Below are positions 15,705 through 43,672 of a stretch of DNA of 54,248 nt, piece after piece. Made by a program: the position numbers and the translations under genes. The notes under the pieces were generated by a model. It was given only the letters and a program-made list of their open reading frames with translations, searched no databases and had not been told where the DNA came from. Numbering within the stretch: position 1 is the stretch's first letter; the number at the start of each line of letters is the position of its first letter. The stretch comes from Geoalkalibacter sp. (GTDB lineage: Bacteria; Desulfobacterota; Desulfuromonadia; Desulfuromonadales; Geoalkalibacteraceae), in NCBI RefSeq assembly GCF_030605225.1, contig NZ_JAUWAV010000029.1, forward strand, positions 1 through 54,248. The letters are read 5' to 3'.

Positions 15705-15810
15705 AATCATGGGACGCGGATCACATCTGAAAAGGCAGGATCAAGACGGATTAGGCTCTTAAATCTGCGTTTATCCTGTAAATCCGCGTCCCCATGCCTT
15801 TGACTTTACC
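15705..15810. repeat. Direct repeat copy B with terminal palindrome
   Basis: This is the second copy of the repeat at 14816-14921. It carries GGACGCGGAT at 15712-15721 and its exact complement ATCCGCGTCC at 15782-15791. Nested inner pairs (GCAGGAT with ATCCTGT, CGGATT with AAATCTG) let the RNA or single strand fold into one long imperfect hairpin. Its right end overlaps the ResB stop codon. The form suggests a REP-like or miniature mobile repeat; no encoded protein is present. Confidence 0.8.
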
Positions 15811-17878: not shown

Positions 17879-20800
17879 TTAGTTGTTGGTGTAGTTGGTT
17901 CCGGTTTCGATCCAGGGCGTGACCTTGTTCCACCCCGGCGCCTCGTTGGCGTCGTCGCCGTCGCCGTCGCCGTTGATATCCACATAGCGATGGCAGTTCA
18001 CGGCGCTGGTGGCGTAGGCGATCTGCTTGTTGCGCCCCAGGCCGCTGACGTCCGCCGCGCTGCCGTGACTCATGATCGTGGCCTTGGTGCCGGTCTTGCT
18101 GGTGTCGCCCGACCACACGATGGTCGTCCCATCCGCACCCCCGCTGTCCCAGTCCGGATCGGCCGCATAGGCATCGTCCCATTTGTTGTGGCTGACATCG
18201 AGACAGTTGGTGATCATCAGCCGCGGCAGCCGCGAGGCGTGGGGGTTGTGGCATTTGGAGCAGCTGAAGCGGTGATACATGGGCTCTCCGGCATCGGCGC
18301 CCGTCTCCTGGTTGAGCCCCCAGTCGAATTCCTCGAAGGCATACTTGTTCTTGTTTTGCGTCGTGCTCCAGGCATAGGGATAGACGCCCATGTTGTTGTC
18401 GGTGGTTCGGGCGCCGTCGCTGATGTAAGTACTGCCCTCGCCGTTGTTGCGAAAACCCCACATCTCGCCGCTCTTTCGCCAGGTCAAGATATCCTGGTAA
18501 GCCATGCCGGGCCTTAGATAGGTCGTGCCCTCGCCGCGGAAGGTCGGATCGTAGACGTTGAATTTGTTGATGCCGCTGCCGCCGATGACGGCGTTGGAAT
18601 GGCCGTTGGTCCCGATCCAGGATTTTTTCGCGGCTTCGGAGGTGCCGTCGGCGTGAACGTTGAACTTGTTCATGTTGTTGACGTCGGTACCGTGACACAG
18701 GGTACAGATGCCCGCCGAACTGCTCAGGGTCCAGCTGGCCGTGGGAAAATCGCTGTTCTGATCGATCCAGTAGCCGCCCATCTTGGCCATGGAGGTGGAA
18801 CCGCGCGGCACCATGCCGAAATCGTCCCGGGTGCCGTCGTAGTAGTACTGCGCCTTGTTCGCGGCGGTTGCGTCCCGGTAGCCCTTGAAGCGCCCGGGGG
18901 CGCCGTCCTCCAGGTAGGGATTGCCCTGCCAGGTGCCGCGCAGGAAGGGCCGGCCGTTGGCGGTATCGCCGGGAGCGTGGTTCATGTCGTGCACGTCGTG
19001 GCAATAGGAACAGCGGATCTGCGCCACGCTGTCCATGCCCGGGCGGGTCACCGCCGGGTTGACGGAATGGGTGGACACGACGCTGCCGGTCTTGTAGGGG
19101 AAGTTGGCGCTGTCCCAGCTTGCCCCCACCCAGTTGGAGCGGTGCGCGCGGCTGCCCCAACTGCCCGTGTTGTTGTGCAGCCAGCCCGAATCGTAGGTGG
19201 TGGCGTATTTCCACTTGGCTCCCGTCGCGTTGAAGGTCGTGGTCCAGGTACTTGAGTTGACGTCGTCGAGGGTGAAAGTGTCGGCGCCCGTGACGGTGAC
19301 GGTACCCGTCCAGCCGTTGAGCTCGACCATGCCGTTGGCCATGTAGAGGATGATGCGATCGCCGGTGGACAGCCCGTGGGCGCTGCTGGTGACGCTCGCG
19401 GGATTGGCCTTGGTGACGGCGGTGATAGCCTTTTCGGTGACTTTGTTGTTGTTGATGCCGTTGTAGCCCCATTCGGAGATTCGGGGCGTCTGGGCGTCAT
19501 GACAGCCCCAGCAGATCTCGGCCTCGGTGTGGAAGGGGCCGCGGCCGCCGATGGTCTTGCGCAGGTGGATGCCGCCGGAGCTGTAATCAAGCCCGACGAT
19601 GCTGTTGTTGGGGATGAACACCGTCTCCGCGCCGGGCGGGTTTTTGCCCGCGGCGGTCTCGTCGCCCTGGGGATGCCCCTCGACGTGGCAGTAGGTGCAG
19701 TAGCGCACCTGCCCGCCGTCGCTGACGTGGGGGATGTGCTTGGTTTTGAGCACCTCGCCGGCGGAGAAGCGGATGCCCGCCGCGATGGGTTTGTGGAAGG
19801 TCAGGGAGGTGGCGGTCTTGGCCGTCACCACGAAATAGGTCTCGCCCTTAATTATGCGATCGCCGGCCTCCATGGTGTGACCGCCCTGCACGCCGAGCGT
19901 TTGGATCACGCCGTTGCCGTTGACCGTGGCGCTCACCGTGGCGACATGCTCGGTGATGGGCACCGTCGCGCCCGGCCAGAAATTGTTGTCCTCATGACCG
20001 TGGCATTCGTTGCAGGAGATGAGCTTGGGCCCGCCGGGTTCGCTGGTGCGGGTTTTCCACTGCGGCAAGGTCGCATTGTCGCCATGGCAGCGCAGTTCGG
20101 ACGTTCCGCCGCAGGTGCCGGGATTGCCGCCGACGGGCGGATTCCAGACGGCATGCTCGCCGGCGCTGGAGTGCATGTGTACATCCACCGTGCCGTCGGC
20201 ATGATCGGCACCGAGATGACAGAGCTTGCACTGATCGCCGGTCAGGCGATAGGAGAAGTTCAGATGACGTTCGTGCTGGCCGACGGCGTTGCTCAGGGTG
20301 TTGCCGAGCAGATCGACGGCGGGCGCCGATTTGTAGATGGGCACGTTGCCCGCGTACTTGGTGTCGGTGCGGGTATCCTCCCACAGGCGCCCGTAGGGAT
20401 CCTTGTTGCCGCGGCTCATGCTGCCGTGGCACATGGCGCAGGTCACCGATGCCCGATCGCCCCACACCGGGGTGCCCGGTCCGTGGCAGCCGGTGACGCC
20501 CGTGGCGTTGAAGCCGAAGCAGCTGCCGTTGTCGCGGTTGTCGCCGGTGGCGGGGTTGAGGTCGTTGAAGCCGCCGCCGCCTGTGTTGTCCTGATAGATG
20601 GTGACCGTTCCCGCCTGATTCTTGTAGATCACCTGGGTGTCGCTCTGGCTGAAGGGCCCGACGGCGGTGTTGGTGTAGCCTTTCCTGGGGTTGTTCCAGG
20701 CCATCCTGGTCACGCCGTCCATGTGATTGAGATCAAAGCTGTCGGCTTCCTGACCGTGACACTTGGTGCAGTCGGTCTGGGTGAAGCCGTGCTCGTCGTG

Positions 20801-23800
20801 GGTGCCGGCGGTGGCCAGGTCGTCGGGCGGGGTGCTGTGGCAGACGCCGCAGCGCAGGCCGCCCTTGGCGCTGGGCGAGTTGGACAGCCCCGACCAGTTG
20901 CCCGCCTCGTCCGCCGTCTTGATGGCGAAGAAATAGCTCTTGCCGGGATTGAGGCCCAGCACCTCGTAACCCTGGCGGTGACCGGGTTCCGTGGGCACCG
21001 GTTCGCCCGTCACCTGGACGGCGGCATCCCACTCGGCGCCGCTGTCGATGGCCTGGGCCGGGTTGTGGGGGTCGGAGAGCTGATAGCGGATATCGTACTG
21101 GCTGGCCTTGCCCACCATGCCGTCGTCGCCGGGCGCGTGCCAGTAGAGCCACACGGTGCCGGTCTTGGGCCGATGCTCGGCGACCAGGTCGGTGATGGCC
21201 GCGGGCGGCGTGGTATCCACCGAGTTGTTCACGGTGAAGGAACTCGAGACGGCATAGCGGTGATCATGCAGGCTGCCCTCCGCCAGCCCGCCGGGGTCGG
21301 TGCCGATGATGCGGTGCAGCAGCCCGTCGGCGGCGCCGACGCGGAAGCGGACACCACTCTGGGGACCGGTGAGGCCGATGCCGTGGGCCTTGGTGTCCCA
21401 GGCGACGCTGGTGCTTCCCAAATCGCTTGCGATGACGTAGGGCCAGGTCGCGCCGTTGTCGATGGAGCCGTGAACGTCGTACACCACCTCGTCGCCGTCG
21501 CTGTCCGTCGAGGGATTCCAGCTCAGATTGACCGTGCCCGCGACATTGGCGCTCGGGTTGTCGACGGTGAAGAGGCCGGGCAAATCGTTGCCCTCCTGCT
21601 CGTAGACCGTCAGGATGCTGGTGCCGCGCTTGCCGCCGTAGCGGATTTCCAGGTTCTTGGTGGTGGTCTTGCGCAGCTTGACCGCCAGCTTCATGCCGGC
21701 GGGAATTTCAATGACCTTGTTGTCGACGCTCGGAAAATAGAACTTGACCGTCGCCCGACTGTTGCGCCGCAAGGAGATGGAAACCGCATCCAGGGCGACG
21801 AACTGCCCGTTACCTGGATTCCAGTAGCCGAGCTCGGCGACCACGATGTTGCCCGTCGTGTCGCTGCGCTCGCGTAGATAGACGGCGAAAGTACCGCCGT
21901 GGATGTAGGTCTTCTTTGCATATGTGGTGTTGAACACCCAGGTGATGATGTCGCCGCTCATGGTCAGGTTTGAGAGGGTGTTGCGGTCCCTGGTGCCCAG
22001 ACAGGCATAGCCGCCGTCTCGCAGCAGCGAGCGATAGGGCCCGGCCCAGGTGCTGGTGTTGATGTTGCAGCTGTTGGTCAGGTTGGTACTGGCGCCGCCC
22101 AGGGCAACGCCCGTGCTCTGGATGGCGAAGTAGCGCCGGCCGAAGATTTCGTTCTCGCCGGGAATCTGCGGAATCGCCTCCTTCTCCCGGGTGTTGGCGT
22201 CGGTGTTCTGGGCGGGCGATGCGTCGCGCGCCCGCACCGCGAAACGGTAATCCAGGCCGTTCTGCAGGCCGGTGACGCGATAACCCAGGGAACGGGTGGT
22301 GGCCTGGGGGGTGCTGTAATTGATGGACTGGTTGGCCAGCGCCCAATATATCAGATAGGTCACGGGACCGGTGTCGTCCTCGGCCGCGCCCCATTCGAGA
22401 TCGACGGCGCCGTCGGCATAGGCGGGGAAGGCGGCGACCAGGCCCTGGAATTCAGGCGCGAAGCTGTCGATACGCGCCTGGGCGCTGACGCTGTTGGAGG
22501 CCGGGGCGAAATTGGTCATGGTTTCGTCGAAGGCCTTGACCGCGAAATAGTAGGTGGTGCCGGGGCTCAGGCCGTGGACGATCATGGTCTGAGTCCGCTC
22601 GATGCTCCCCGGATAGGTGCGCACCGCGCTGGGCGCGCCGCCGGCGATGGTGCTCGAATTCCAGTTGAGGTCGGTCACCGGGCCGCCCGTGCGGTAGCGC
22701 ACCTCGTAGCCGTAGGCCACCGGCCCCGAGCTGCCGTCGTTGAAGGGCGGCGTCCAGGTGAGGCGCACCGTGCCCACCGCGTCGCCGGTGTGGGCGGCGA
22801 GATCGCTGATCTGGCCGGGCGCCGTGCTGTCCTCGTACCAGGTCCAAGTGAAGTCGCCGTTGCTGTGGCAGTCGATGTTGCTGCAGCGCTTGATCACCGG
22901 ATTGAACATGCCGTCGGGATCCACGTTGCCCGAAAGATTGGTGAACTTGGTGGGATTCCAGGCATCGCCGTGCACATCGGCCACCAGATCCGTGCGTCCG
23001 CTGATGGGCGCGGAGTGGGCGCCGCCCTGGGCGTTCCTGCCGCCCGGGTCGGGATGGCAGTTGACGCAGCTGGCGTTCTGGTGGGGCAGCTTCTGCGCCG
23101 CGGTCATGCCGGCCCACGCCGCTTCGCTCACGCCCGCCAGGGCGCGGCCGATGGCATTGACGTGCGGCAGATGAGCGCCGGCGCGATCGGCAACGTTGTA
23201 GCCCTCGCGCACGTTTCCGGCGATCACGATGTCATCAGGCCAGAAATAATCGGCGGAGACGGCGTTGTTGCCGCCGCCGTGGCAGCCGTTGCAGCCGCTG
23301 GGCTTGAAGGCCACCGTCTCGTGGTCGTGCTTGTGGCAACTGGTGCACAGCCCGGCGAAGTGATCGGGAGCCTCGGCCGCGCGGTTGAAGTAGTTGACCT
23401 CGGCCGGGTCGTGGCACACCTGGCAGATGCCGTACTGGTTGTTGCCGCCCTGGTTGGGGGTGGGCAAATAGTAGCTCGCGCGCTGGCCCTTGTCGCTGAA
23501 GCCGCCGACGGAGCGCCCGGCGATGCTGGAGCGCAGCATCGCATCGAGGCTGCCCTGACCGTGGGGATCATGGCAGGTGGTGCAGCGCACGGCGGTTTCG
23601 CTCGTGCCGCCCGGGGTCTGGGTATTGGCGTAGTGGACGTTGGCGGCGAAAGCGTGACAGGCCCCGCAATAGGCGTTGGGCGCTTCCGCCGCATAGGTTT
23701 GCCCGGCGACCACCTTGAGGCGAAGCGTGGCGGCGGCCCCCATGTGTCCGGCGTCGAAGGCGCCGTCATGGCAGTTGCCGCAGGCCTGGGCGGGCGCGGG

Positions 23801-26125
23801 CGAGCCGCCGGTGGCCGTGGTCTTGCCGTGCCCGGCGCTGAAATAGGCGGTCTTGGCGGAGGCGCTGCGCGTGATGCCGTCGCGATCCACGTAGGAGGTG
23901 GTTTGAGCGCCGGTGTGGCAGGAGAGACACTCGGCGCTGGCGGGGTTGCCCCAGGCCAGGGTCGATTCGCCCTCGATGCCGTGGCACTGGACGCAGGCGT
24001 TCTCGAGCAGGGTCAGGGTGCCGTCGACATGGCCGGCATGAGCGCCCGTATGAGCCGAGGGGCCATGACAGGAGCCGCAGGCGATGTTGGCGCCTTGCGT
24101 GGCGACATGCACGGCGTGGCTGCCGCCGAGATTCGCGCCCTCGACGCCATGACAGGTGCCGCAGGCGCCGCTCGTCGGCACATCCCAGTCGGGCGCGGCC
24201 AGGGTGCCCCGGCCGTTGGAGTGGCAGACCACCGCGCAGGTGCCGGTGGAACTTGTATAGGTGGCCGCGCCGAGGTTGACGGTTCCCAGGCTGAAGGCGG
24301 CATCGAAGGCCACATCCACCTTGCCGTCCACGTGCGTGCCGCCGGGGGTCATGGCGCCGGCGGTGAGCGCCGTGGCGCTCGCGGCGGTCTGCACGTGACA
24401 CACGCTGCACGCATAGCGAGCCACATGCTTGGCGTGGGCCGCCGAGTTGCGCCCGGCCATGCTCGTCCCGTCGTTGCCGTGACAGGAGGCGCAGCGGCCG
24501 ACGTTCGTCATCAGGGTGTTCCTGCCGCCCGCCCAGTTGACGGAGACGGTCTGATAGGCGCGCGTCGGGCCGTCGCCCGTGCGCCGCCCGCCGTTGCTGT
24601 GGCAGTAAAGGTTGTTGCAACTGCCGCCGCCCGCGCCGTTGTAGGCCGGCGCCAGCGCGCCGCCCGCGCTGCTCAGGGCATCGGCGGGAGCCAGAAACAC
24701 ATCCTGGAACGTCCCCGTGTCATGCTGGTAGTTCTTGTGGCAGGCGTTGCAGCTGAACCGATACTGCCCGGCGCCCCCGCCCGCATGGCTGGCGTGGGGG
24801 GTGGCCGCTTCGTCCTTGAAGACGCCCGAGGTCAGGTAATTGTAGCCCTTGATGGCATGCACCGCGTAACCGGCGCGCCCCTCGCCGCCCAGGGTGCCGC
24901 TCGCCAGATTCTGCGTCGGCGGATAGCCGTGGCAGGCGTTGCACGACCCGGCGGCGCCAAAGCTGTGGCTGTCGGGGCCGCTGTAGTGGTTGTGGCAATC
25001 GGTGCACACGGCGCTCGCCACATGGTAATCGCCCGCGCCCGCGCCGATGTCCTTGGCGTCGCCGTGGCATTTTTCGCAGTAACCCTGGGCCGAGCCGTCG
25101 ATGCCGTCGTTCCAGAAACCCGCCTTGAGGGCGGGATTGAGCACGGACGAGCTGCTGTAATTCAAGCCGGTTTTGGCGCCGAAGGTGTCGGTGGTCACAT
25201 CGCGGCGCAGCACGAAATAGTTGGGGTTGCCGCCGTTGAGGGAATGGCCGCCGTGGCACACCAGACAGCCCACTTCCTCACCGCCGTTGCTCATGTCGCC
25301 GTGGGCGTTGTAGGTGTGGCAGCTCTGGCAGAGTTCGGATTTGTTCGCGCCCTGGGGTCCGTCGGCGCGCAGCAGCTTGCCGTCGCCCGTGAGATTCTGC
25401 CCCGGGCCGTCGACGGTGGAAGATTTGGAGTCGGCGAAATGCACGCCGTGACAGGAGGTACAGCCCACCCCGCCGTTGACCAGGCGCACGTCTCCGGGAG
25501 CCTCCGCCACCTGCGCGGGGGCGCGGTACTGCATCGGCTTGGCCGTCGCCACCGCCGCATAATCGGAGAGCAGGGGATGGGAAAGCAGACCGCGCTCGCT
25601 GCTGCCGATCGCCCAGGGCAGATGACACTCGACGCACATCTGTTCGGCGCTGCCCGTGCCCAGGCGCAGAATCTTGGTGTTGGTCACATCGCGGCTGTGG
25701 GGGTCGTGACAGCGCTGGCAGGTCACCTTGCCGGTGGAAATGCCGTAGCGGCCGTAGAAGAGCTGATGGGTGGGGGCCTTGGCGCCGGCGGCGACGTTGA
25801 CGTCCTTGGCGGCCCACATGTGGGAGGTCTGGGCGCCCGGCGGCATGCCCTGGGGATAGGTGCCCAGGGCATTGCTGGCATCGCCGGGGGCAAAGCGCCC
25901 AACGGGCGCCCTGAAGGTGCCGTCGAGCATCAGGGTCGGTGAGGCGCCGTCCTTGTGACACTGCAAGCAGATGTTGGTGGTGCCTTGCCCCAGATCGACG
26001 AAGCTCACCCCGACCTTGTGACAGTTCTTGCAGTCAAAATTGTGGATCACCGTGGCTTCGGCGGAAAACGCAACCGCGCACACCAACAACAGGGCCGGCA
26101 CCCACTGCTTCCAACATCTCCGCAT
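17879..26125 (-). CDS. Giant multiheme c-type cytochrome 1 (about 37 short heme motifs)
   Basis: This 2748-residue protein has a signal peptide (about 1-24, ending SAEA) and, by eye, 34 CXXCH, two CX4CH and one CX3CH motifs, plus longer variants (CX7CH, CX10CH). Residues 30-1090 hold 27 motifs. Residues about 1095-1750 lack hemes and contain fibronectin type III repeats (WTPPFNDGSSGPV, GLSPGTTYYFAVKAFD, AITDL). Hemes resume from about 1755 to the C-terminus. Many motif pairs fit the Geobacter CxxxxCH...CXXCH domain. It is exported, probably outer-membrane or extracellular, for long-range electron transfer. The start ATG 26125 follows GGGAG by seven bases; the longer frame lacks a signal peptide at its start. 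Its N- and C-termini closely resemble cytochrome 2, so the two are paralogs. Confidence 0.93.
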   Translation of the reverse strand: MRRCWKQWVPALLLVCAVAFSAEATVIHNFDCKNCHKVGVSFVDLGQGTTNICLQCHKDGASPTLMLDGTFRAPVGRFAPGDASNALGTYPQGMPPGAQTSHMWAAKDVNVAAGAKAPTHQLFYGRYGISTGKVTCQRCHDPHSRDVTNTKILRLGTGSAEQMCVECHLPWAIGSSERGLLSHPLLSDYAAVATAKPMQYRAPAQVAEAPGDVRLVNGGVGCTSCHGVHFADSKSSTVDGPGQNLTGDGKLLRADGPQGANKSELCQSCHTYNAHGDMSNGGEEVGCLVCHGGHSLNGGNPNYFVLRRDVTTDTFGAKTGLNYSSSSVLNPALKAGFWNDGIDGSAQGYCEKCHGDAKDIGAGAGDYHVASAVCTDCHNHYSGPDSHSFGAAGSCNACHGYPPTQNLASGTLGGEGRAGYAVHAIKGYNYLTSGVFKDEAATPHASHAGGGAGQYRFSCNACHKNYQHDTGTFQDVFLAPADALSSAGGALAPAYNGAGGGSCNNLYCHSNGGRRTGDGPTRAYQTVSVNWAGGRNTLMTNVGRCASCHGNDGTSMAGRNSAAHAKHVARYACSVCHVQTAASATALTAGAMTPGGTHVDGKVDVAFDAAFSLGTVNLGAATYTSSTGTCAVVCHSNGRGTLAAPDWDVPTSGACGTCHGVEGANLGGSHAVHVATQGANIACGSCHGPSAHTGAHAGHVDGTLTLLENACVQCHGIEGESTLAWGNPASAECLSCHTGAQTTSYVDRDGITRSASAKTAYFSAGHGKTTATGGSPAPAQACGNCHDGAFDAGHMGAAATLRLKVVAGQTYAAEAPNAYCGACHAFAANVHYANTQTPGGTSETAVRCTTCHDPHGQGSLDAMLRSSIAGRSVGGFSDKGQRASYYLPTPNQGGNNQYGICQVCHDPAEVNYFNRAAEAPDHFAGLCTSCHKHDHETVAFKPSGCNGCHGGGNNAVSADYFWPDDIVIAGNVREGYNVADRAGAHLPHVNAIGRALAGVSEAAWAGMTAAQKLPHQNASCVNCHPDPGGRNAQGGAHSAPISGRTDLVADVHGDAWNPTKFTNLSGNVDPDGMFNPVIKRCSNIDCHSNGDFTWTWYEDSTAPGQISDLAAHTGDAVGTVRLTWTPPFNDGSSGPVAYGYEVRYRTGGPVTDLNWNSSTIAGGAPSAVRTYPGSIERTQTMIVHGLSPGTTYYFAVKAFDETMTNFAPASNSVSAQARIDSFAPEFQGLVAAFPAYADGAVDLEWGAAEDDTGPVTYLIYWALANQSINYSTPQATTRSLGYRVTGLQNGLDYRFAVRARDASPAQNTDANTREKEAIPQIPGENEIFGRRYFAIQSTGVALGGASTNLTNSCNINTSTWAGPYRSLLRDGGYACLGTRDRNTLSNLTMSGDIITWVFNTTYAKKTYIHGGTFAVYLRERSDTTGNIVVAELGYWNPGNGQFVALDAVSISLRRNSRATVKFYFPSVDNKVIEIPAGMKLAVKLRKTTTKNLEIRYGGKRGTSILTVYEQEGNDLPGLFTVDNPSANVAGTVNLSWNPSTDSDGDEVVYDVHGSIDNGATWPYVIASDLGSTSVAWDTKAHGIGLTGPQSGVRFRVGAADGLLHRIIGTDPGGLAEGSLHDHRYAVSSSFTVNNSVDTTPPAAITDLVAEHRPKTGTVWLYWHAPGDDGMVGKASQYDIRYQLSDPHNPAQAIDSGAEWDAAVQVTGEPVPTEPGHRQGYEVLGLNPGKSYFFAIKTADEAGNWSGLSNSPSAKGGLRCGVCHSTPPDDLATAGTHDEHGFTQTDCTKCHGQEADSFDLNHMDGVTRMAWNNPRKGYTNTAVGPFSQSDTQVIYKNQAGTVTIYQDNTGGGGFNDLNPATGDNRDNGSCFGFNATGVTGCHGPGTPVWGDRASVTCAMCHGSMSRGNKDPYGRLWEDTRTDTKYAGNVPIYKSAPAVDLLGNTLSNAVGQHERHLNFSYRLTGDQCKLCHLGADHADGTVDVHMHSSAGEHAVWNPPVGGNPGTCGGTSELRCHGDNATLPQWKTRTSEPGGPKLISCNECHGHEDNNFWPGATVPITEHVATVSATVNGNGVIQTLGVQGGHTMEAGDRIIKGETYFVVTAKTATSLTFHKPIAAGIRFSAGEVLKTKHIPHVSDGGQVRYCTYCHVEGHPQGDETAAGKNPPGAETVFIPNNSIVGLDYSSGGIHLRKTIGGRGPFHTEAEICWGCHDAQTPRISEWGYNGINNNKVTEKAITAVTKANPASVTSSAHGLSTGDRIILYMANGMVELNGWTGTVTVTGADTFTLDDVNSSTWTTTFNATGAKWKYATTYDSGWLHNNTGSWGSRAHRSNWVGASWDSANFPYKTGSVVSTHSVNPAVTRPGMDSVAQIRCSYCHDVHDMNHAPGDTANGRPFLRGTWQGNPYLEDGAPGRFKGYRDATAANKAQYYYDGTRDDFGMVPRGSTSMAKMGGYWIDQNSDFPTASWTLSSSAGICTLCHGTDVNNMNKFNVHADGTSEAAKKSWIGTNGHSNAVIGGSGINKFNVYDPTFRGEGTTYLRPGMAYQDILTWRKSGEMWGFRNNGEGSTYISDGARTTDNNMGVYPYAWSTTQNKNKYAFEEFDWGLNQETGADAGEPMYHRFSCSKCHNPHASRLPRLMITNCLDVSHNKWDDAYAADPDWDSGGADGTTIVWSGDTSKTGTKATIMSHGSAADVSGLGRNKQIAYATSAVNCHRYVDINGDGDGDDANEAPGWNKVTPWIETGTNYTNN

Positions 26126-26499
26126 ACCATCGCTCCCAGATGCTATCGGGTGAACTCTGAACATGCCGCAAAAAAACCAGCCGATCAGCGAAACCACGGA
26201 ATGTGTATCGACAACCAACATTCCCCTGACCTTGGACTTCGCCGCCCGCGGCTTGGCCGGCCGGGGCGAAACAGGAGCTTACAGTCAAAAGAAAAATCTT
26301 ATTTGAAAATGCTAATGCATAAAGCGCGCCGCACTTTTGGGGTCGCCTAAATCAGTGCGTATCGCCACGAAGATCGCAGCCCTGGGAAGGATCGACCGGA
26401 ACACATCCATCATCAAATCAAATGGTTAGAAATTTCTTCTGGATCCGGCGAAGGTGGCATGGCAAAAATAGGATTTACTTTGCGGAAAGGTTTCAAGCC
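26126..26499. other. Divergent intergenic region between cytochrome 1 and TPR lipoprotein
   Basis: The 374 bases hold the cytochrome 1 leader and the upstream region of the 26500 gene. A GC-rich leader hairpin has arms TTCGCC (26238-26243) and GGCGAA (26265-26270) with further internal pairing. The shared operator-like element lies at 26300-26330. I see no clear sigma70 or sigma54 promoter, no riboswitch and no short gene that can be supported. Confidence 0.6.
26300..26330. promoter_or_regulatory. Conserved palindromic element upstream of cytochrome 1
   Basis: A 31-bp stretch matches the one at 34338-34368 at about 26 positions. Its core is ATGC-TAAT-GCAT, preceded by TATTTGA and followed by AAA and CGCGCC. 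It begins 175 bases upstream of the cytochrome 1 start codon. In the other copy the outer core pair changes A-T to G-C on both sides, keeping the symmetry, as expected for a protein-binding site. Confidence 0.7.
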
Positions 26500-27801
26500 A
26501 TGTCGCGAATTCTGATGTGTGCCACTCTGCTGCTCGCCCTGGTCATGGGCGGTTGCGAACAACGCCGGGAACAGCCCACCGACAAGCGAGCCGAGGCCCT
26601 GCCTCGCAAGCCCTTTCATGAGGCGTTGGAACCCGAGCTTTACGAGCTTCCCTCGGGCGCCCTGGCGACCTGGCGCGCTCATGCCCGGCACCAACCGGCC
26701 CTGGTGCTCTTCGCGAACCATCCCTATCTGGATCCCTTGCCCGAAACCGGCCGCGAGGAGCTGAGGGATTTTTTGCGCACGGCGACACCCGAGGACATCG
26801 TGCGCCGCGCGCGGTTTTTCGTCCCCGATCCGGCTTTTTTGCCGCCGCAAGCCCTGAGCGCCGCCATCGCCGCCGGGCTGTTTTCCGAAATCGTCTTCGT
26901 CTATCCCGGCACCCAGGAAAAAGACGCCTTTTCCCTGGAGGATTTTCAGCGCCGTGCGCTTGCCGCCGGTTTCCTGAACGAGGAGGAAACTCGCGCCCTC
27001 AGCCTGCACGACGGGGTCATCGGCGGCCGGGTGCGCGGCCTGCCCTTGCGCTGCGTGCATCCCGAAGCCCTGCCGTCCCTGGACAAGCCGGTGATCCTGC
27101 ACATCGATCTCGGGTATTTCAAGGATCTCTACCAGAATGAGATCCGCACCCCCGTCTACGACCTGCTCCATCAGACCGCGACGGCGATACGGGACGCGGG
27201 CTTTCCCGCCCTGGCCGTCACCCTGTCCTTCTCCAACGCGGAGGTCGGATTTTCCCTCGAATCACGTTTCATGATCAGCGATCTGGCGGAACTTCTGCGG
27301 CGCCCAGCCGCTCTTGAGGGCGGCACGCCGCGAAGCTGGACCTACCGCGCCGCCGCGCTGTTCGCCGGCGCCATGTTCATGGAGGGGCGTTTTCGCGAGT
27401 TGACCGAGGAGGCGGCTCAGGCCGGTCCGGCGGATGCCGCGGCCCAATACGCCCTCTCCTTGGTGCGCTTTCAGCAGGGCCGCGACGAGGAGGGCTTCGC
27501 CCTGCTGGATCGCGCCGTGGCGCTGGATCGGGGCTTTGCCCTGGATTACCTGGAACTGGCCGAGGTGGGAGCGGAACAGGGGCGATGGGACAAGGTTCTG
27601 GAACTGATCGAAAAAGCGGCGGCGCTTGATCCGCGCAATCCCTTCCCGCGCCTGCGGCAGGCCGATGCCCTGATCCAAGGCGGTCGGGGAAACGAGGCCT
27701 TGCCGCTTCTCGACGCGCTGCGGCGCCTGCCCTGGTCCCCCCGCCATCACCCCGACATCCTGCGCCTTCTCGAAGAAATGATGCAAGCCGCCGGCGCCTG
27801 A
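26500..27801 (+). CDS. TPR-like lipoprotein, paralog of the 49785 gene
   Basis: The 433-residue protein has a lipoprotein signal ending VMGGC at Cys19. Its middle domain includes KPVILHIDLGYFKDLYQNEIRTP, and its C-terminal helical part reads like TPR repeats (ALDRGFALDYLELAEVG, then AAALDPRNPFPRL) and ends near LRRLPWSPRHHPD. The same landmarks occur in the 438-residue lipoprotein at 49785-51101, so they are paralogs. The ATG at 26500 is chosen for the signal peptide and GGAAAGG upstream. It lies between the two giant cytochrome genes and ends seven bases from the end of cytochrome 2. Function is not known; an exported helper or interaction protein is an inference. Confidence 0.8.
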   Translation: MSRILMCATLLLALVMGGCEQRREQPTDKRAEALPRKPFHEALEPELYELPSGALATWRAHARHQPALVLFANHPYLDPLPETGREELRDFLRTATPEDIVRRARFFVPDPAFLPPQALSAAIAAGLFSEIVFVYPGTQEKDAFSLEDFQRRALAAGFLNEEETRALSLHDGVIGGRVRGLPLRCVHPEALPSLDKPVILHIDLGYFKDLYQNEIRTPVYDLLHQTATAIRDAGFPALAVTLSFSNAEVGFSLESRFMISDLAELLRRPAALEGGTPRSWTYRAAALFAGAMFMEGRFRELTEEAAQAGPADAAAQYALSLVRFQQGRDEEGFALLDRAVALDRGFALDYLELAEVGAEQGRWDKVLELIEKAAALDPRNPFPRLRQADALIQGGRGNEALPLLDALRRLPWSPRHHPDILRLLEEMMQAAGA

Positions 27802-27808
27802 ACCCTTC

Positions 27809-30800
27809 TCAGGGGTTGGGATTGGTGCTCGGCGTCGCATCCGGGGCGGTGAATTCCAGCCAGGGCGTCACCTTGTTCCAGCCCGGACCGCGCGCGGTGC
27901 TCGCCCCGGAAGCCAGGGATGCGCGGTCATCGAGGCGATGGCAGTTCTGCGCGGCGGCCCATTGCGAGGCGCGCGTGCCGGCCCAGGGCGTGCCGATGGA
28001 ACCCGCCTCCTGAAAATTGTTGTCCCAGGTGTTGTGGTTGGTGTCCAGGCAGTTGGTGATCATCAGCTTGGGCAGCCTCGAGGCGTGCGGATTGTGGCAC
28101 TTGGCGCAGTTGAAGGTGTGATAGTTGGCCTGGGCGTTGTAGCTGCCCGCCTCGGTCTTGCTGCCCGCGCTGGTGAACTGGCTGTTCTGGTCGGCCACCT
28201 GCAGCTTGAGCGTGCCCGAGGCGATGGGCGTGGCGCGGTTGTAGCTCGAATTGTAGTCGCTGTTCCAGACGAAGTAGCGAAAGCTGTAGGGACGGCCGGT
28301 TCCGGCGGCGGACGTCGAGGTCGTCGCGATGCGCGGGTAATACAGATAGCCGCTGCCGTCGTTGTCTCGGTAGGAATAGCCGCGGTCATACTCGGTGGCC
28401 AGCCCCATGTCCACGTCGCCAGTTCTGGCTTGACCGATGACGGCCGTCGCCTTACCGCGCTTGGCGCGGGTGAAGATGTTGCGCGCGTGGGACTCGGCGC
28501 TGTTGTTGGCGCCGCTTCCCGGTCCGCCGATGACGGCGTTGGCGTGGCCGTTGTAGCCGGATACCCACAGATTTTCGCCGGTCTTCTGGTCGAGAAAGTT
28601 GAGGTCGCTGCCGTGGCACTGGGTACAGAGTCCGGCCGTCGATGCCAGGGTTTCCCCGGCGTTGGGATTGGCGCTGTTCTGATCGATCCAGAACCCGCCC
28701 ACCTTGGCCAGCGTACTCAGGCCCGAATTGCTGTCGGAGGCGCTGGCGCGCGGTACCCGGCCGAAGGTCAGGGTGGTGTTGGCGTCCACCGTCCAGTTGG
28801 CCATGCCCCACTGGGGCGCGCCGTCCTCGGGATAGGGGTTGCCCTTCCAGGTGCCGCGCAGATAGGGCCCGGCGGTGGCCGCGGGGCCGCTGATGTCGCC
28901 GTTCACGCCGCCATGGGTGCCGTGCACGTCATGGCAGTAGCTGCAGCGGATGTCGGCCACATGGTTGGGCGTTTCCGTGTGCCGGTAGGCGCTGCCGCCC
29001 AGGGCCGCGTCGGTCACCGCCGGGTTGGCCGTATGCGTCGACTGAACGGCGCCGCGCTTGTACCAGAAGGGATTGTAGGCCCCGCCGTTCTGCACCCCCT
29101 TGGCGCTGCGCCAAAAACCGGTGGTCCAGTTGGAGGTCGGGGTGCCGGGCACGGTGCTGGCGTCGGTGTAGAGATAGCCGTAGTCGTAGTCGAGATTGCC
29201 CGTGTGGGCCGTCTGGTTGACGCCCCACTCGGACACCGGGCTGAAAATGCTCACCCCGGCCGCCGAGGTCACCGATGTCAGACTGCCGCTGCCGGTGGGG
29301 ATGGTGACGGTGAGGGAGTTGGCCGAGGAGGTCGCCACCTTGAAGGTGCGGTTGTTGGCCGCCTGGGCCGAGCCGCGAATGGTGATCCAGCGGCCCACGC
29401 CGAACTTGGCGCCGATGCCCGTGGCGGCGATGGTGTTGGGCGCGGTGAAGGTCACGTTGACGCCCGAGAGGGTGTAACGGCTGGCCGTCACCGCGTCATG
29501 GCAGTTCCAGCAGATCTGCGCCTCGCTGGCGCCCGAGGCCTTGCTGCCGCCCAGGCGGATTTTGCTGCCGTGGGAGGCATAGGTGAAGTTCATGGTCGCC
29601 ACCGGCGTGCCGCCGCCGTAGGTCGTCGGGATATCGACCTCACCGGCGCCCAGGGGGCGATTGGCGTGACCGCTGTGGCAGTCGGTGCAGCCGGTGAAGC
29701 TGAGACCGTCGGCCTTGGTGTGGCTGCTCGTCGCGCCGACGCCCAGGGCGCCGCTGCCGCTGCCGGTGTGGCAGTCGGTGCAGGCCAGGGTCGCGCCGTT
29801 GCGCCACAGATCGTTGCCCGCAGCCGCATGGCAGACATTGGTGCAGTTCTTGTTCGCGGCGTTGTAGCTGAGCGTATCGGTGAGCTGGCCGTTGGTGTGT
29901 CCGACATGGATGCCGGAATCGGCGCCCGCGCCGTGGCAGGCGACGCAGCCACCGGCAGCCGCGACATGCACCGCGTGGATCGCGTTGGTGCCCGTCGGCA
30001 CGGCATTGATCAGGGCGGTTCCGGCGCTGCCGTCGTTGTGGCACTGCACGCATTTCTGCGGCGGCGCTCCCATGGAGGCGTTCCAGGCCGGGGTCGGCTT
30101 AAAGATGCCGTTGCCGTCGGAATGACAGTAGACCCCGGAACAGGTGGTGCCGTTCCAGACGGCGCCGGGCTGGTTCTTGCTCTTGAGCACCCCACCGTCG
30201 GCGGGATTGAGAGAGAGGTTGCGCACGCCGTTCATGTGCAGGGCGCTGTTGAGCGTGTGGCAATTGCCGCAACCATAATCATAGACGCCACCCGACGAAT
30301 TGTTCGCGGTGCTGCCCAGGCCGGCGGCGGGGGTGACCACATGGGCGTCGTGACCGCCGCTGACGGGTGCCGCCGGATGGCAGAGGGCGCAGGTTTCGGC
30401 GCGCGCCGTTCCCCAGGTCACGACCACCAGGGGCGCGCCGCCGCGCCCGTCGTTATGGCAGGAACCGACCCCGCAGCCGCCGTAGGTGGCGGGGCTGAAA
30501 TCCTCGATGTCGCCGCCGTAACCCAGACCGGCGTGCAACTCCACGCGGCCGTTGCGATGGGCGCTGTTCGCGGTGTAGGGATGGCACTTGGAGCATTGCC
30601 CGAAGATGTTGGGGTCGCCGCCGTAAACTTCCTCGAAGCCCATGTGCGCGAGATGGCTGCCGCTCTCCGGGTAGGGACCAAAACCATGGCAATAGCTGCA
30701 GAAACCGTATCGCGACTCATCCCAGTCGGCCTTGAACGCACCACCGGAGGGATTATGACAGGCGATATTGGCGCAGGTGTTGAGGCCGTCGCCGGGCACT

Positions 30801-33800
30801 GACGGGGCGCCGTTGACCCAGGTATTGCCGCCGCCGGCATTGCGCGCGCCGTCGTCGACACGCACGCCCAGACCCGTCGGGTTGAGGAAGGCGTAACCCT
30901 GGTAGCGGATGCGGTCGGCATCGCCGGCGGCGTTCTTGGCGTTGTTGTGGTTGCGCTTGAAGGCGAGATCCGTGGAGACGGCGCCGTGGCAATCACCGCA
31001 CACCACCGGATCGATGATGAGAGCAAAGTGACTGTTGTGCTTGCCCGAGAGAGGGGCAAGCTGGCCTGCCGCGTTGCGATAGGCATTGTTGCCCGCCACC
31101 GTCGGCGCGGCCGCGTAGTAGTGACAGGAATCGCAATCGAGGCCGTCGGCGTCGTTCCAGGCGCCATCCGCCGGGGTCGATTTGTGGCAGGCCAGGGCGC
31201 AGGTCTGTTCGGCGGAAACGTAACCCATCGCCGCGGCCAGCAGGGTCAGACGCCCGGCCGCCGTGCCGTGATTGAGGCCGCCCACCTGATCCTGCCCCAT
31301 GTCGTAACTGTACTGATCGGCGCCGGGGTGACAGAGGGCGCAGTCGGAGCGATCCTCAGCGTCCTTGTCATGGCCGGCGACCAGCGCGTGCCAGGCATGG
31401 GCGCCGCTTGCGGGGGGATTGCCGTGGCAATCGGCGCAGGAGGTGCCCGGGCCGATCATGAACGCCGGCTCGCGATCGTGGCCGTGGCAGTTGGTGCAAT
31501 TGCCGCTGCCCTGATGGTTCGCCGCGTTGCTCGGCGTGTTGTTGAAATGATTGACCGCCGCGCCGTGACAGGCCTGGCAGACTCCGCTGCCGGAGGCATT
31601 GACGTAATCGGCGCGGGTCAGGCCGTTGCCGGGGTTGTAACCGGTGCCGACCACCAGCATCGCGCCGGAGTTGCCGCCCATCCCCTGACCATGAGGCTCG
31701 TGACAATTGCGGCAGGCATCGGCCGCGGCGCTGCCGTTGGCCGCGGCGAAATGCACCTTGAAATCGGCGGAGGGATGGCAACTCTGGCACCAGTCGCTGG
31801 GATTGGCGTAATTGCCGGTCAGGCGCGGGTTGTTGTTGCCGTCGAAGTGACCGCCGGCGGCGGCATCGTGACAGCCGAGGCAATCCGGCGCGCCGTTCAG
31901 GCCGCTTTTACCGTGGCCACTCAGGTAGAATGCCGACTTGTCCACATAGGAGCCGAGCCCGCCCCGGCCCTCGAAGACCGCGATGGCGCCGCCCGTATGG
32001 CAGGTGGCGCAGCTCACCGTGGCGGCGTTGCCCCACACCGGTTCGCGATCCGCGCCGCTGGTCTGCTCGGCCAGGGCGCCATGGCAGGCGTTGCACACCG
32101 CGGTCAGGTCGTTCACCAGACTGACCGCGCCATCGACGTGCGTGGCGCCGCCGCCGCTGTTGGTGTGACAGGCGGTGCAGGCCAGTCGCGGGCCGCCGGA
32201 GGTGAACAGATGGGCCGCGTGGGAGCCGCCCAGGGCCGGCCCGCCGCCCGTGGCGACGCCCGCGACGCCGACCTGGTGACAACTGCCGCAGGCGCCGCTC
32301 GCCGATTCGTCCCAATCGGGGGTCACCCGCGTGGTGCCGTTGGAATGGCAATAGACGGAGCAGGTGCCCGCGCCGCCGAAGGTGCCGGCGCCGAGGGACC
32401 GGGCACCCAGGTTGTGCGTTTCGGCAAAACGGACCTCCACCACGCCGTTGACATGAGCGCCGCCCGCCGCGGCGCCGCTCGCCAGGGCCGTGCTGCTGCT
32501 CGCCGTCTCGACGTGACAGACATTGCAGCCGTAACGCGCGATGTGCGCGGCATGGGCCGCGCTGTTGTTCCTGGCGGCCATGCTCGCGGCATGGTTGCCG
32601 TGGCACTGGGCGCAGTCGGTGATGGCACCGCCCTGCCAGGAGGGAATGCTTGCCGCGCTGGGCGCGGTTCCTCGCACGCGACCGTTGGAGTGGCAATAGA
32701 GCTGGGCGCAACTGCCGTCGGCGGCGGGATTGTAGGCAAGCGGCACCAGTCCCCCCGTCGCGGCCAGGGGTGAGAAGCGCACATCCTGAAAGCCGCCGTT
32801 GAGATGGGTGGTGCCGAAGTCGGCATGGCACTCGACGCAGGCGAAGCGGTAGTTGCCCGCGCCCTGGTCGATCAGATCGGCGTGCTTGCGATGGGCGCTC
32901 AGGCTTTCGTTCTTGGGCGCGACCACCCCCGCCGCCGTCTTGTAGCCCGCCGCATGTCCCGTGGGACCGCCCGCGCCGTCGCTGCTCGGCGCGTAGCCGT
33001 GACAACTGTTGCAACTGCCCCCGGCAAAGCTCTCGTCGCCATGACGGTGGCAGCCGCCGCATTGGTCGATCCCCCCCTGGGTCAGACCGTTGTGCGTGCC
33101 CAGACTGTGGCAGCCCTGGCAATACCCGCCGCCGCCCGCGTTCATCCAATCCTTGGAACCTGGGGTGTAATTGAGGCTCGCCGTGCCCGGCCCGCCGGTT
33201 TTCGGCAGGAAATCGAGGGAAATCGTCTTGCGCAGCATGTAGAGGTTGGGCGTGGATCCCGCCTCGGGCGCATGACCGCCGTGGCAGCTGAGACAGCCGA
33301 TGGGATGCGCGCCGCCGTGCGTCTGGTAGAGATGGCAGGCCTGGCAGAGATTGGAGCGCAACTGCGCGGTTTCGGCGGCATCGGTGCCGCTCGCAAGCGG
33401 TCCGTCGCTGCGCAGCAGCTTGCCGTCGCCGACCAGGTTGGTGCCCCGGCCGTCGGCCGTCGCCGATCTGGAATCGACAAAATGCACGCCGTGACAGGAA
33501 CTGCACCCCACGCCGCCCTCGACCAGGCGAATCTCGCCGGGCGCGGCGGCCACCCCGGCGGCATCGCGATACTTGCCGGGGTTGGCGTTCACCACATCCG
33601 AGTAGTTGGAGACCAGGGGATGGGTATAGGTGGCCGGGCCGATGTTGGCGACATTCCAGGGCGCGTGGCACTCGACGCAGAGCGCCTCGGTGCTGCCCGC
33701 GCCCAGGCGCAGAATCAATCGGTTGTTCAGATCGCGGCTGTGCGGGTCATGACAGCGCTGGCAGGTGAGCTTTCCCGTGGAAATGCCGTAGCGACCCTGA

Positions 33801-34171
33801 AACAAAGGATTGGTCGGCGCCTTGGCGCCGGCCTTGGGGTTGACGTCCTTGCCCGCCCACATGTGGGAGGTCTGGCTTCCGGGAACCATGCCCTGCGGAT
33901 AGGTGCCCATGGCGTTGCTGGCATCGGTGGGCGCGAAGCGGCCCTGGGGCGTTTTCGGCGGCCCCGAGAGCATGGTCCAGGGGCTGGGGTTGAGGTTGTG
34001 GCATTGCAGGCAGACATTCTGGGTGTTGCTGCCGAGATCGGTGAAGTTCACCCCCACCTTGTGGCAGTTCTTGCAGTCGAAATTGTGGAGCACGGTGGCC
34101 CAGGCCGAGCCGCACAGCGTCGCCGCCGCCAGCACCAGCGCCAGAATCCATCGCGTCCACCCTCGCCTCAT
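27809..34171 (-). CDS. Giant multiheme c-type cytochrome 2 (about 45 short heme motifs)
   Basis: This 2120-residue protein has a signal peptide (about 1-25, ending GSAWA). By eye it has 38 CXXCH motifs, four CX4CH (CAQLYCH, CANIACH, CGVGSCH, CSGVYCH) and three CX3CH (CSVYCH, CALACH, CTNVCH). Unlike cytochrome 1 it has no fibronectin block. Hemes are spread along most of the chain, with short beta-rich inserts near the C-terminal third. The first 250 residues and last 200 closely match cytochrome 1. The ATG at 34171 has GGGAG eight bases upstream. It is the last gene of a minus-strand series of beta-helix and transthyretin-like proteins, suggesting joint assembly at the cell surface. Electron transfer to extracellular acceptors is the likely role. 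Confidence 0.93.
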   Translation of the reverse strand: MRRGWTRWILALVLAAATLCGSAWATVLHNFDCKNCHKVGVNFTDLGSNTQNVCLQCHNLNPSPWTMLSGPPKTPQGRFAPTDASNAMGTYPQGMVPGSQTSHMWAGKDVNPKAGAKAPTNPLFQGRYGISTGKLTCQRCHDPHSRDLNNRLILRLGAGSTEALCVECHAPWNVANIGPATYTHPLVSNYSDVVNANPGKYRDAAGVAAAPGEIRLVEGGVGCSSCHGVHFVDSRSATADGRGTNLVGDGKLLRSDGPLASGTDAAETAQLRSNLCQACHLYQTHGGAHPIGCLSCHGGHAPEAGSTPNLYMLRKTISLDFLPKTGGPGTASLNYTPGSKDWMNAGGGGYCQGCHSLGTHNGLTQGGIDQCGGCHRHGDESFAGGSCNSCHGYAPSSDGAGGPTGHAAGYKTAAGVVAPKNESLSAHRKHADLIDQGAGNYRFACVECHADFGTTHLNGGFQDVRFSPLAATGGLVPLAYNPAADGSCAQLYCHSNGRVRGTAPSAASIPSWQGGAITDCAQCHGNHAASMAARNNSAAHAAHIARYGCNVCHVETASSSTALASGAAAGGAHVNGVVEVRFAETHNLGARSLGAGTFGGAGTCSVYCHSNGTTRVTPDWDESASGACGSCHQVGVAGVATGGGPALGGSHAAHLFTSGGPRLACTACHTNSGGGATHVDGAVSLVNDLTAVCNACHGALAEQTSGADREPVWGNAATVSCATCHTGGAIAVFEGRGGLGSYVDKSAFYLSGHGKSGLNGAPDCLGCHDAAAGGHFDGNNNPRLTGNYANPSDWCQSCHPSADFKVHFAAANGSAAADACRNCHEPHGQGMGGNSGAMLVVGTGYNPGNGLTRADYVNASGSGVCQACHGAAVNHFNNTPSNAANHQGSGNCTNCHGHDREPAFMIGPGTSCADCHGNPPASGAHAWHALVAGHDKDAEDRSDCALCHPGADQYSYDMGQDQVGGLNHGTAAGRLTLLAAAMGYVSAEQTCALACHKSTPADGAWNDADGLDCDSCHYYAAAPTVAGNNAYRNAAGQLAPLSGKHNSHFALIIDPVVCGDCHGAVSTDLAFKRNHNNAKNAAGDADRIRYQGYAFLNPTGLGVRVDDGARNAGGGNTWVNGAPSVPGDGLNTCANIACHNPSGGAFKADWDESRYGFCSYCHGFGPYPESGSHLAHMGFEEVYGGDPNIFGQCSKCHPYTANSAHRNGRVELHAGLGYGGDIEDFSPATYGGCGVGSCHNDGRGGAPLVVVTWGTARAETCALCHPAAPVSGGHDAHVVTPAAGLGSTANNSSGGVYDYGCGNCHTLNSALHMNGVRNLSLNPADGGVLKSKNQPGAVWNGTTCSGVYCHSDGNGIFKPTPAWNASMGAPPQKCVQCHNDGSAGTALINAVPTGTNAIHAVHVAAAGGCVACHGAGADSGIHVGHTNGQLTDTLSYNAANKNCTNVCHAAAGNDLWRNGATLACTDCHTGSGSGALGVGATSSHTKADGLSFTGCTDCHSGHANRPLGAGEVDIPTTYGGGTPVATMNFTYASHGSKIRLGGSKASGASEAQICWNCHDAVTASRYTLSGVNVTFTAPNTIAATGIGAKFGVGRWITIRGSAQAANNRTFKVATSSANSLTVTIPTGSGSLTSVTSAAGVSIFSPVSEWGVNQTAHTGNLDYDYGYLYTDASTVPGTPTSNWTTGFWRSAKGVQNGGAYNPFWYKRGAVQSTHTANPAVTDAALGGSAYRHTETPNHVADIRCSYCHDVHGTHGGVNGDISGPAATAGPYLRGTWKGNPYPEDGAPQWGMANWTVDANTTLTFGRVPRASASDSNSGLSTLAKVGGFWIDQNSANPNAGETLASTAGLCTQCHGSDLNFLDQKTGENLWVSGYNGHANAVIGGPGSGANNSAESHARNIFTRAKRGKATAVIGQARTGDVDMGLATEYDRGYSYRDNDGSGYLYYPRIATTSTSAAGTGRPYSFRYFVWNSDYNSSYNRATPIASGTLKLQVADQNSQFTSAGSKTEAGSYNAQANYHTFNCAKCHNPHASRLPKLMITNCLDTNHNTWDNNFQEAGSIGTPWAGTRASQWAAAQNCHRLDDRASLASGASTARGPGWNKVTPWLEFTAPDATPSTNPNP

Positions 34172-35332: not shown

Positions 35333-35350
35333 GAGTGCGCCCTTCCCGGC

Positions 35351-43668: not shown

Positions 43669-43672
43669 CCCA

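What the first reader, a model, noticed from the sequence alone, without database searches (positions are those of the whole stretch)
17879..34171. Two paralogous giant cytochromes with about 37 and 45 heme motifs in one island
The proteins of 2748 and 2120 residues share their N-terminal region (DCKNCHK, CLQCH, CQRCH, CVECH in the same frame of spacing) and their C-terminal region, but differ in the middle. Both are exported, and their motif pairs fit the Geobacter CxxxxCH...CXXCH domain. Such sizes exceed the well-studied nanowire cytochromes OmcS, OmcE and OmcZ. They could be long conductive chains. Known: multiheme cytochromes carry electrons over distance. Inference: these two act as alternative or sequential conduits.
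Basis: partly seen in the sequence, partly recalled or inferred. Interest (0 to 1): 0.75.

Follow-up and report, generated by a model that had tools for sequence, protein, structure and literature searches.

The report
Extensible giant multiheme surface cytochromes
Two very large proteins with motifs for about 37 and 45 iron-containing heme groups sit side by side in a Geoalkalibacter-type bacterium and belong to a wider family with one shared building plan, probably used to pass electrons to solids outside the cell, though nobody has yet tested what they do.

Summary
Two minus-strand genes encode proteins of 2748 and 2120 residues with 37 and 45 heme motifs, counting CX2CH, CX3CH and CX4CH. 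Shuffled copies give 0.3 and 0.7 on average. A's first 26 motifs all align with B's. A third giant lies on another contig. The window belongs to Geoalkalibacter.

Giants of this family are already in print: the 69-motif protein of Desulfuromonas soudanensis belongs to it, and a published G. ferrihydriticus locus appears to. What I did not find described is the building plan: an N-terminal core of 27 motifs, extra motifs added mostly after motif 27, a heme-free fibronectin-type block of 619-690 residues, and 10 heme-poor motifs at the end. B lacks the block, and in other genomes the halves are separate neighbouring genes. In A the 678-residue block interrupts the motifs, so one continuous 37-heme wire is not shown.

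Most likely this is an outer-surface conduit for respiring solids. Both structure predictions failed, so heme spacing is untested. 'Alternative or sequential conduits' is undecided.

The parts
17879..26125 (-). Giant cytochrome A, 2748 aa, 37 heme motifs
22865..26032 (-). A: N-terminal core array, motifs 1-27, about 40 residues per motif
   Evidence: motif columns largely shared with 13 other giants
20852..22864 (-). A: heme-free block (678 residues between the starts of motifs 27 and 28) with a fibronectin type III domain
   Evidence: PF00041 at E 1.2e-19; gap length
17879..20851 (-). A: C-terminal array of 10 motifs, about 96 residues per motif
   Evidence: the ten motif columns recur in the other fused giants examined and in B
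27809..34171 (-). Giant cytochrome B, 2120 aa, 45 heme motifs
31184..34075 (-). B: N-terminal core array, motifs 1-27
28094..30700 (-). B: last 15 motifs; 10 of them on the same columns as A's C-terminal ten, 5 interspersed; no fibronectin block before them
15806..17017 (-). ResB-like cytochrome c maturation protein beside A
   Evidence: PF05140; homologs near the giants in G001 and G005
17119..17826 (+). Small lipoprotein-like gene between ResB and A
   Evidence: No Pfam family; homologs near giants in G001, G002, G009 and G010
26515..27801 (+). TPR protein between A and B, paralog of 49785-51101
34439..43673 (-). Conserved block: three right-handed beta-helix genes alternating with three carboxypeptidase-regulatory-like genes, then a membrane-type protein with a spermine-synthase domain
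   Evidence: Pfam for all but 37727-38734, which is named by paralogy; same gene order in G001, G003, G005, G009 and G018
43673..45136 (-). FG-GAP / ASPIC-UnbV protein of the conserved island
45483..54246 (+). Conserved island, plus side: ethylbenzene-dehydrogenase-like heme protein, carboxypeptidase-regulatory-like, HEAT, Fer4_5 (NapH-like) membrane protein, TPR, mono-heme cytochrome c, spermine-synthase/MFS-like protein cut by the contig end

Best explanation
A and B are members of one family of giant exported c-type cytochromes that bacteria of this order use in extracellular electron transfer. Each is an assembly of modules: a conserved core of 27 closely packed heme motifs at the N-terminus; in many members an extension of more motifs after motif 27 (three in B); in A a fibronectin-type beta-sandwich block; and a C-terminal array built on 10 widely spaced conserved motifs. 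I propose that the dense N array is the electron-carrying stalk, that the beta-sandwich block holds or presents the protein at the cell surface or on the substrate, and that the heme-poor C part is the head that exchanges electrons with minerals, electrodes or partner proteins. Shown here by sequence: the modules, their conserved motif columns, the main position of length change, and the existence of split forms. Inferred: heme loading, export and surface location, direction of electron flow, and the stalk and head roles.
For: Motif numbers far above chance. A's 27 N-terminal motif columns are all shared by 11 of the 13 other giants compared (26 in one, 21 in another). Of the 12 proteins there with extra motifs, 11 have them only after motif 27; G026 also has 9 after motif 23 (B was cut at residue 1150 for this). 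Ten C-terminal motif columns are the same in 15 fused giants (9 in one cut by its contig end) and present in B. The extension aligns in order with core motifs (10-26, 11-27 and 5-27) clearly above shuffles in 3 of 7 proteins tested. N and C halves occur as one gene or as two adjacent co-directional genes, interleaved on the N-module tree. Long heme-free regions lie before the C motifs in both forms, B excepted. Families PF09698 and PF14522 over cut-off in both, PF22113 and fn3 in A. A homolog matches the published DSOUD_0664 in genome size and motif count (PMC4914508, passages), listed as extracellular by its authors; very large cytochromes are expressed on electrodes in D. acetexigens (PMC12133095, passages).
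Against: No expression, heme-staining or localisation data for this genome. Both AlphaFold models failed, so no heme geometry. No lipobox or anchor was seen by eye, so surface attachment is unexplained. No MtrB/PioB porin in the genome and no porin Pfam hit among the 20 window frames scanned, so how electrons reach these proteins is open. The ten-motif head is not universal: B has 15 motifs there, and the separate C-half genes of other genomes have 18-24. The G. ferrihydriticus paper names such proteins as candidates only (PMC12016550, passages).
Confidence: 0.5

Rival explanations
1. They are electron reservoirs (capacitors) in the periplasm or at the surface that store charge when no acceptor is at hand, rather than directed wires; motif number matters, order does not.
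For: Motif number varies from 27 to 75 in the N array while the core columns stay; storage is raised by the authors of PMC12133095 (passages).
Against: Motif columns and their order are closely kept (order-shuffle control), which storage alone does not ask for.
Confidence: 0.2
2. They are subunits that polymerise into micrometre filaments like OmcS, OmcE or OmcZ nanowires.
For: Apparently exported, unanchored multiheme proteins of an electroactive order; D. acetexigens, which expresses very large cytochromes, makes appendages of unknown conductivity (PMC12133095, passages).
Against: No sequence match to any solved nanowire chain at E 0.01; the 619-690-residue beta-sandwich block and the split genes are unlike the known filament subunits (the latter recalled).
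Confidence: 0.1
3. They are chiefly adhesins: the beta-sandwich parts bind minerals, polysaccharide or cells, and the hemes are secondary.
For: fn3 in A; six separate C-half genes of other genomes begin with about 700-1,150 residues free of heme motifs.
Against: B has 45 motifs and no such block; N arrays exist as separate genes with no block at all.
Confidence: 0.1
4. They are multi-copy enzymes of nitrogen or sulfur compounds (NrfA-, Otr- or MccA-like).
For: Partial matches to cytochrome c3 (over cut-off) and to the DmsE decaheme model.
Against: No CXXCK motif in either protein; no match to solved nitrite or sulfite reductases; DmsE model far below its cut-off.
Confidence: 0.04

Closest known systems
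DSOUD_0664 of 'Desulfuromonas soudanensis' WTL (69 motifs, PMC4914508, passages read)
   Same: Homologous N core array; G018 has the published genome length 3,958,620 bp and its 2802-aa frame has 58 CX2CH + 11 CX3CH = 69 motifs, the paper's motif definition.
   Different: Split form: its C half is a separate next gene (1706-aa frame, 18 motifs); A and B are single chains with 37 and 45 motifs. Locus tags could not be matched directly.
G. ferrihydriticus 38-heme cytochrome and the 1,208-aa 24-heme fibronectin protein downstream of it (PMC12016550, passages read)
   Same: G003 contig 1 has the published length 1,394,064 bp (PMC4357744, passages). It holds a 2756-aa, 37-motif relative of A (60% identical) followed by a frame with 24 CX2CH motifs and fn3 sequence.
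   Different: My downstream frame breaks near an unreadable codon (X) and the missing C part lies in the next frame, so the published 24-heme protein may be a truncated giant. Count 37 against 38; fn3 after the hemes here but 'N-terminal' in the paper; locus tags could not be matched.
High-molecular-weight cytochromes of Desulfuromonas acetexigens, up to 86 motifs (PMC12133095, passages read)
   Same: Giant cytochromes of the same broad group, expressed on electrodes or iron oxides.
   Different: Homology to A and B was not tested; no accession for the 86-motif protein was seen.
Large ANME multiheme cytochromes (MHC-A/B/C, up to 86 motifs; PMC9012536, passages read)
   Same: Tens of motifs combined with long heme-free domains; presumed transfer across the cell envelope.
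   Different: S-layer, peptidase M6-like or pectin-lyase domains and membrane helices; no such domain was hit in A or B.
OmcS, OmcE and OmcZ nanowire cytochromes (properties recalled)
   Same: Exported multiheme cytochromes of related bacteria.
   Different: 4-8 hemes and polymerise; no sequence match.

Membership tests
CxxxxCH...CXXCH cytochromes (PF09698 / TIGR01904) | Profile match over the curated cut-off | tested here: met
   A 28.1 bits (cut-off 21.7) and 47.4 (27); B 49.0 and 93.8
DSOUD_0664-type giant cytochromes | Homologous N-terminal array with the same motif columns | tested here: met
   Of A's 27 columns, 26 shared with the G018 frame and 27 with B
DSOUD_0664-type giant cytochromes | Homologous C-terminal heme module, fused or as the next gene | tested here: met
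   Ten shared columns in fused forms and B; homology of the split C halves, which carry 18-24 motifs
Nanowire cytochromes (OmcS/OmcE/OmcZ) | Sequence relation to a solved filament chain | tested here: not met
   No hit in the PDB at E 0.01 for B, and for A only a weak ubiquitin-activating-enzyme match; single-sequence search, so distant relation is not excluded
Nanowire cytochromes (OmcS/OmcE/OmcZ) | Polymerisation into filaments with stacked hemes | not testable with these tools
   Needs microscopy; structure prediction failed
OmcA/MtrC outer-membrane decaheme cytochromes | MtrC/MtrF domain II/IV profile | tested here: inconclusive
   PF22113 over cut-off in A (92.4 bits, 2 stretches), not listed for B; multiheme repeats may inflate such scores
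OmcA/MtrC outer-membrane decaheme cytochromes | Partner porin MtrB in the genome | tested here: not met
   PF11854: 0 matches in the genome, 99.96% complete
Porin-cytochrome conduits (Omb-Oma-Omc, Ext) | Beta-barrel and lipoprotein cytochrome encoded alongside | tested here: not met
   No porin family among the 20 window frames scanned with Pfam; not every window frame was scanned and divergent barrels could be missed
ANME large MHC | S-layer domain or membrane anchor | tested here: inconclusive
   No S-layer, pectin-lyase or M6 domain hit; membrane helices were not run with a program

The most novel reading that the evidence does not exclude
This is a conduit whose length is set by evolution: a fixed 27-heme base and a conserved head built on ten hemes, with heme stretches added mainly at one place between them (up to 49 more, in some members by block duplication), so that bacteria tune how far one polypeptide carries electrons from the cell. 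The heme-free beta-sandwich acts as a joint between two electronic segments that may be made as one chain or as two proteins that dock.
Probability: 0.25. Interest if true: 0.75.

Novelty: new variant of a known kind. Interest (0 to 1): 0.5.

Why it matters
In the papers I could see, very large cytochromes of metal-respiring bacteria are reported mostly as motif counts. A family with conserved ends, one main extension point, and natural fused and split versions offers direct tests of whether heme number sets electron-transfer reach, and whether separate heme arrays must touch or can work across a heme-free joint. Strains holding homologs include cultured species (G. subterraneus, G. ferrihydriticus, D. 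soudanensis, identified here by published assembly lengths).

Tried and rejected
Structure: AlphaFold of the N module (B residues 27-1044, 3 rows) gave mean pLDDT 26.9 and of the C module (B, 740 aa, 6 rows) 30.1; I ran no fold search on them and draw nothing from them. PDB sequence search found no useful relative. A plasmid search with B found nothing.

'A and B are a local tandem duplicate': rejected; A groups with the C54, G001 and G003 copies and B stands on its own branch, and A is 62% identical to the C54 giant but 43% to B's N part.

'The conserved island is the partner system of the giants': not settled. Of 136 genomes of the order, 38 have the N module (E 1e-40), 39 a homolog of the 41100-43673 protein (E 1e-150), 28 both (Fisher p 3e-12), but relatedness was not corrected for and many genomes are incomplete. 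10 genomes have the giant without it and 11 the reverse at these cut-offs. Island and giants adjoin in G000, G001, G003, G005 and G009, but in G018 the island block lies at 3.26 Mb and the 69-motif gene at 0.76 Mb, with a smaller 22-motif C-module protein about 80 kb from the island.

'The tetraheme neighbour is essential': 11 homologous tetraheme genes stand near giants in other genomes, but the ortholog here lies on contig C2 with no other frame over 80 aa holding two or more CX2CH motifs in the 18 kb read.

Rows dropped: the tree used only the 26 N-module rows (E 1e-60) whose best match ran from query residue 5 or earlier to 950 or later; the fused set is the 15 fetched frames over 2500 aa with a step over 600, out of 52 frames with three or more CX2CH; the 14 proteins and the 7 were chosen by hand to span the tree. 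In one search three of 7 stood out, one (G034) was only just above its shuffles (110 against 107 bits), and three were within the shuffled range.
Full report
What is there. The two minus-strand genes are real and the counts are right. A (17879-26125, 2748 aa) has 34 CX2CH, 1 CX3CH and 2 CX4CH motifs; B (27809-34171, 2120 aa) has 38, 3 and 4. Shuffling the residues gives 0.32 and 0.66 such motifs on average over 500 shuffles each. Both match multiheme families over their cut-offs (Cytochrome_C7, Cytochrom_c3_2 and GSu_C4xC__C2xCH in both, Paired_CXXCH_1 in B), and A also matches fn3 and an MtrC/MtrF-like domain. Histidines are plentiful, 119 and 107 in the open frames, enough for two ligands per motif; that count is not evidence of coordination.

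How A and B relate. In the N-terminal stretches aligned, A's 26 motifs fall on B's motif columns, 26 of 26. The alignment depends on order: with B's inter-motif segments shuffled, the score drops from 758 bits to at most 303 in 40 shuffles for the N part, and from 293 to at most 209 for the C part. The genome has a third giant on contig C54 (2778-aa frame, 37 motifs), 62% identical to A along its length. C54 matches the flank that follows the island in G003: the end of a protein 55% identical to G003's 31-motif cytochrome, then the giant, then genes 70-91% identical in the same order. So C54 probably continues the right end of this window; the join itself is inferred. On a tree of 26 N modules A groups with the C54, G001 and G003 copies, and B stands apart.

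Where it comes from. G002 contig 193 has the length, and the cytochrome frames have the same coordinates, as NZ_JAUVWH010000047.1, Geoalkalibacter sp. CSMAG_1185, and G002 is in the window's genus. G003 contig 1 (1,394,064 bp) and G005 contig 1 (3,475,523 bp) have the published lengths of the largest contig of G. ferrihydriticus Z-0531 and the chromosome of G. subterraneus Red1 (PMC4357744, passages). G018 (3,958,620 bp) has the length of 'D. soudanensis' WTL (PMC4914508, passages).

The building plan. I read every frame with three or more CX2CH motifs in the stretches fetched, 52 frames. Fifteen are fused giants with a step over 600 residues. In all 15 the order is: an N array of 27-62 motifs at about 38-47 residues per motif; one heme-free step of 619-690 residues; then 10 motifs at about 76-96 residues per motif. 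One (G007) shows 9 because its contig ends. The C motifs lie on the same ten alignment columns in all of them, and B has all ten among 15. In 14 N arrays compared, A's 27 columns are shared in full by 11 of the 13 others; the D. soudanensis frame shares 26, and G005's second copy 21. Of the 12 proteins with extra motifs, 11 have them only after core motif 27; G026 also has 9 after motif 23 (B was cut at residue 1150 and has 3 extras there). In three of seven proteins tested the extension aligns in order with core motifs (10-26, 11-27 or 5-27) clearly above 20 shuffles; a fourth is only just above, three are not. So the array has probably grown by block duplication in some members, mainly at one place.

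Limits of the plan. The ten-motif C array is a rule of the fused giants. B carries 5 further motifs among the ten columns. The separate C-half genes carry 18-24 motifs; in the alignment, two of them (L024) share at least 9 of A's ten columns and add about as many others. A stand-alone C module with 11 motifs (10 CX2CH and 1 CX4CH, 752-aa frame) occurs in L023, 46% identical to B's.

Split forms. In G002, G005 (second copy), G009, G018 and G051 the N array is its own gene (32-75 motifs), and a C-half gene with 18-24 motifs lies beside it in the same direction. These genes begin with about 700-1,150 residues free of heme motifs; the three I looked at (G002 two, G005) have an export signal by eye. 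Fused and split forms are interleaved on the tree: by my count about three changes are needed, one of them resting on a weak branch (84/69). Recurrent fusion and fission of neighbouring genes is usual for parts of one complex (general knowledge), which is my reason to treat N and C as one working unit.

Published relatives. The G018 N-array frame has 58 CX2CH + 11 CX3CH = 69 motifs, the number and motif definition given for DSOUD_0664 (PMC4914508), so that protein belongs here. The G. ferrihydriticus paper (PMC12016550, passages) singles out a 1,208-aa protein with 24 heme sites and fibronectin domains downstream of a 38-heme cytochrome. In G003 the frame downstream of the 37-motif giant has 24 CX2CH motifs and fn3 sequence and breaks near an unreadable codon, with the missing C part in the next frame. 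If this is the same locus, as it appears, the published protein may be a truncated giant. D. acetexigens expresses cytochromes of up to 86 motifs under electrode or iron-oxide growth (PMC12133095, passages); I could not test homology. My searches for a description of this modular plan (listings; passages of the papers cited and of PMC8235581, PMC7762298, PMC12977616, PMC6148476 and PMC2825233) did not show one, in a library that lacks most subscription journals and preprints.

Surroundings. A ResB-like maturation gene lies beside A. From 34439 to the contig end runs a conserved island: three beta-helix genes alternating with carboxypeptidase-regulatory-like genes, two proteins with spermine-synthase domains, an FG-GAP/UnbV protein, an ethylbenzene-dehydrogenase-like heme protein, HEAT, NapH-like and TPR proteins, and a small cytochrome c. 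The order is kept in G001, G003 and G005 (the small cytochrome c not found in G005), flanked by giants on both sides; the island also adjoins giants in G009, and its first block is found in G018 away from the giants. All the island genes but the TPR one are better conserved than A: for the first spermine-synthase protein 86% in G001 and G003 and 71% in G005, against 53-62% and 44% for A. Across 136 genomes of the order that protein and the N module co-occur (39 and 38 genomes, 28 with both; p 3e-12, not corrected for relatedness). Across 395 genomes drawn from the phylum the N module was found in 11 at E 1e-30, all in this class.

Function. Nothing here was measured. The reading as an outer-surface conduit rests on export signals seen by eye, the families, the published relatives and the physiology of the named species. 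The wire idea is weakened for A as one continuous chain by the 678-residue heme-free block, which could be bridged only by folding back; the predictions that might have shown this failed. I give the conduit reading 0.5, a charge-storage role 0.2, filament formation 0.1 and an adhesin-first role 0.1.

Verdict. Observation confirmed and sharpened; interpretation partly supported; individual proteins are members of a kind already in print, while the plan of conserved core, extensible middle and conserved head, with fused and split versions, appears undescribed in what I could search. Interest 0.5.

Noticed in passing
34439-54246: Conserved island of beta-helix, carboxypeptidase-regulatory-like, spermine-synthase-domain, FG-GAP/UnbV, EB_dh-like, HEAT, NapH-like and TPR genes, nearly all better conserved than the giants and often present where giants are; function unknown and no paper found with the one search tried.
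   Followed up: partly
20483-20521 and 20084-20113 (-), in A: Two further Cys...CysHis pairs with unusual spacing (CX10CH and CX7CH), both also seen in the C54 paralog and in most G001/G003 copies, so A may carry 39 rather than 37 hemes.
   Followed up: partly
L001 1-1045 (G000:C54): Start of C54 encodes the end of another cytochrome with at least 14 motifs, 55% identical over 173 residues to a 31-motif protein in the equivalent place of G003.
   Followed up: partly
G000:C2:120574-121359 (L069 8551-9363): Tetraheme cytochrome, 67% identical to the one near a giant in G. subterraneus; 11 such genes stand near giants in other genomes, but here it is unlinked.
   Followed up: yes
A, residues 2279-2323 of the 2780-residue frame: Weak match to the E1 FCCH domain (below Pfam cut-off); by eye a similar small insertion seems to be present in B's C part.
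   Followed up: no
G003:C1 (loci L029-L031): Two of the three giants of the G. ferrihydriticus assembly are broken near unreadable codons, so annotated cytochromes there may be truncated.
   Followed up: partly
G000:C36, frame of 828 aa (within L035 and L002): A smaller lipoprotein-like cytochrome with 10 motifs and the same CxxxxCH domain.
   Followed up: no
L023 9338-11593: Stand-alone C module with 11 motifs; the large ~9-heme cytochrome of Desulfuromonas acetoxidans (PMC7762298, passages) might be of this kind, not tested.
   Followed up: no
G026:C123 (L049 7339-19533): A relative with a single 4064-residue frame and 72 heme motifs.
   Followed up: partly
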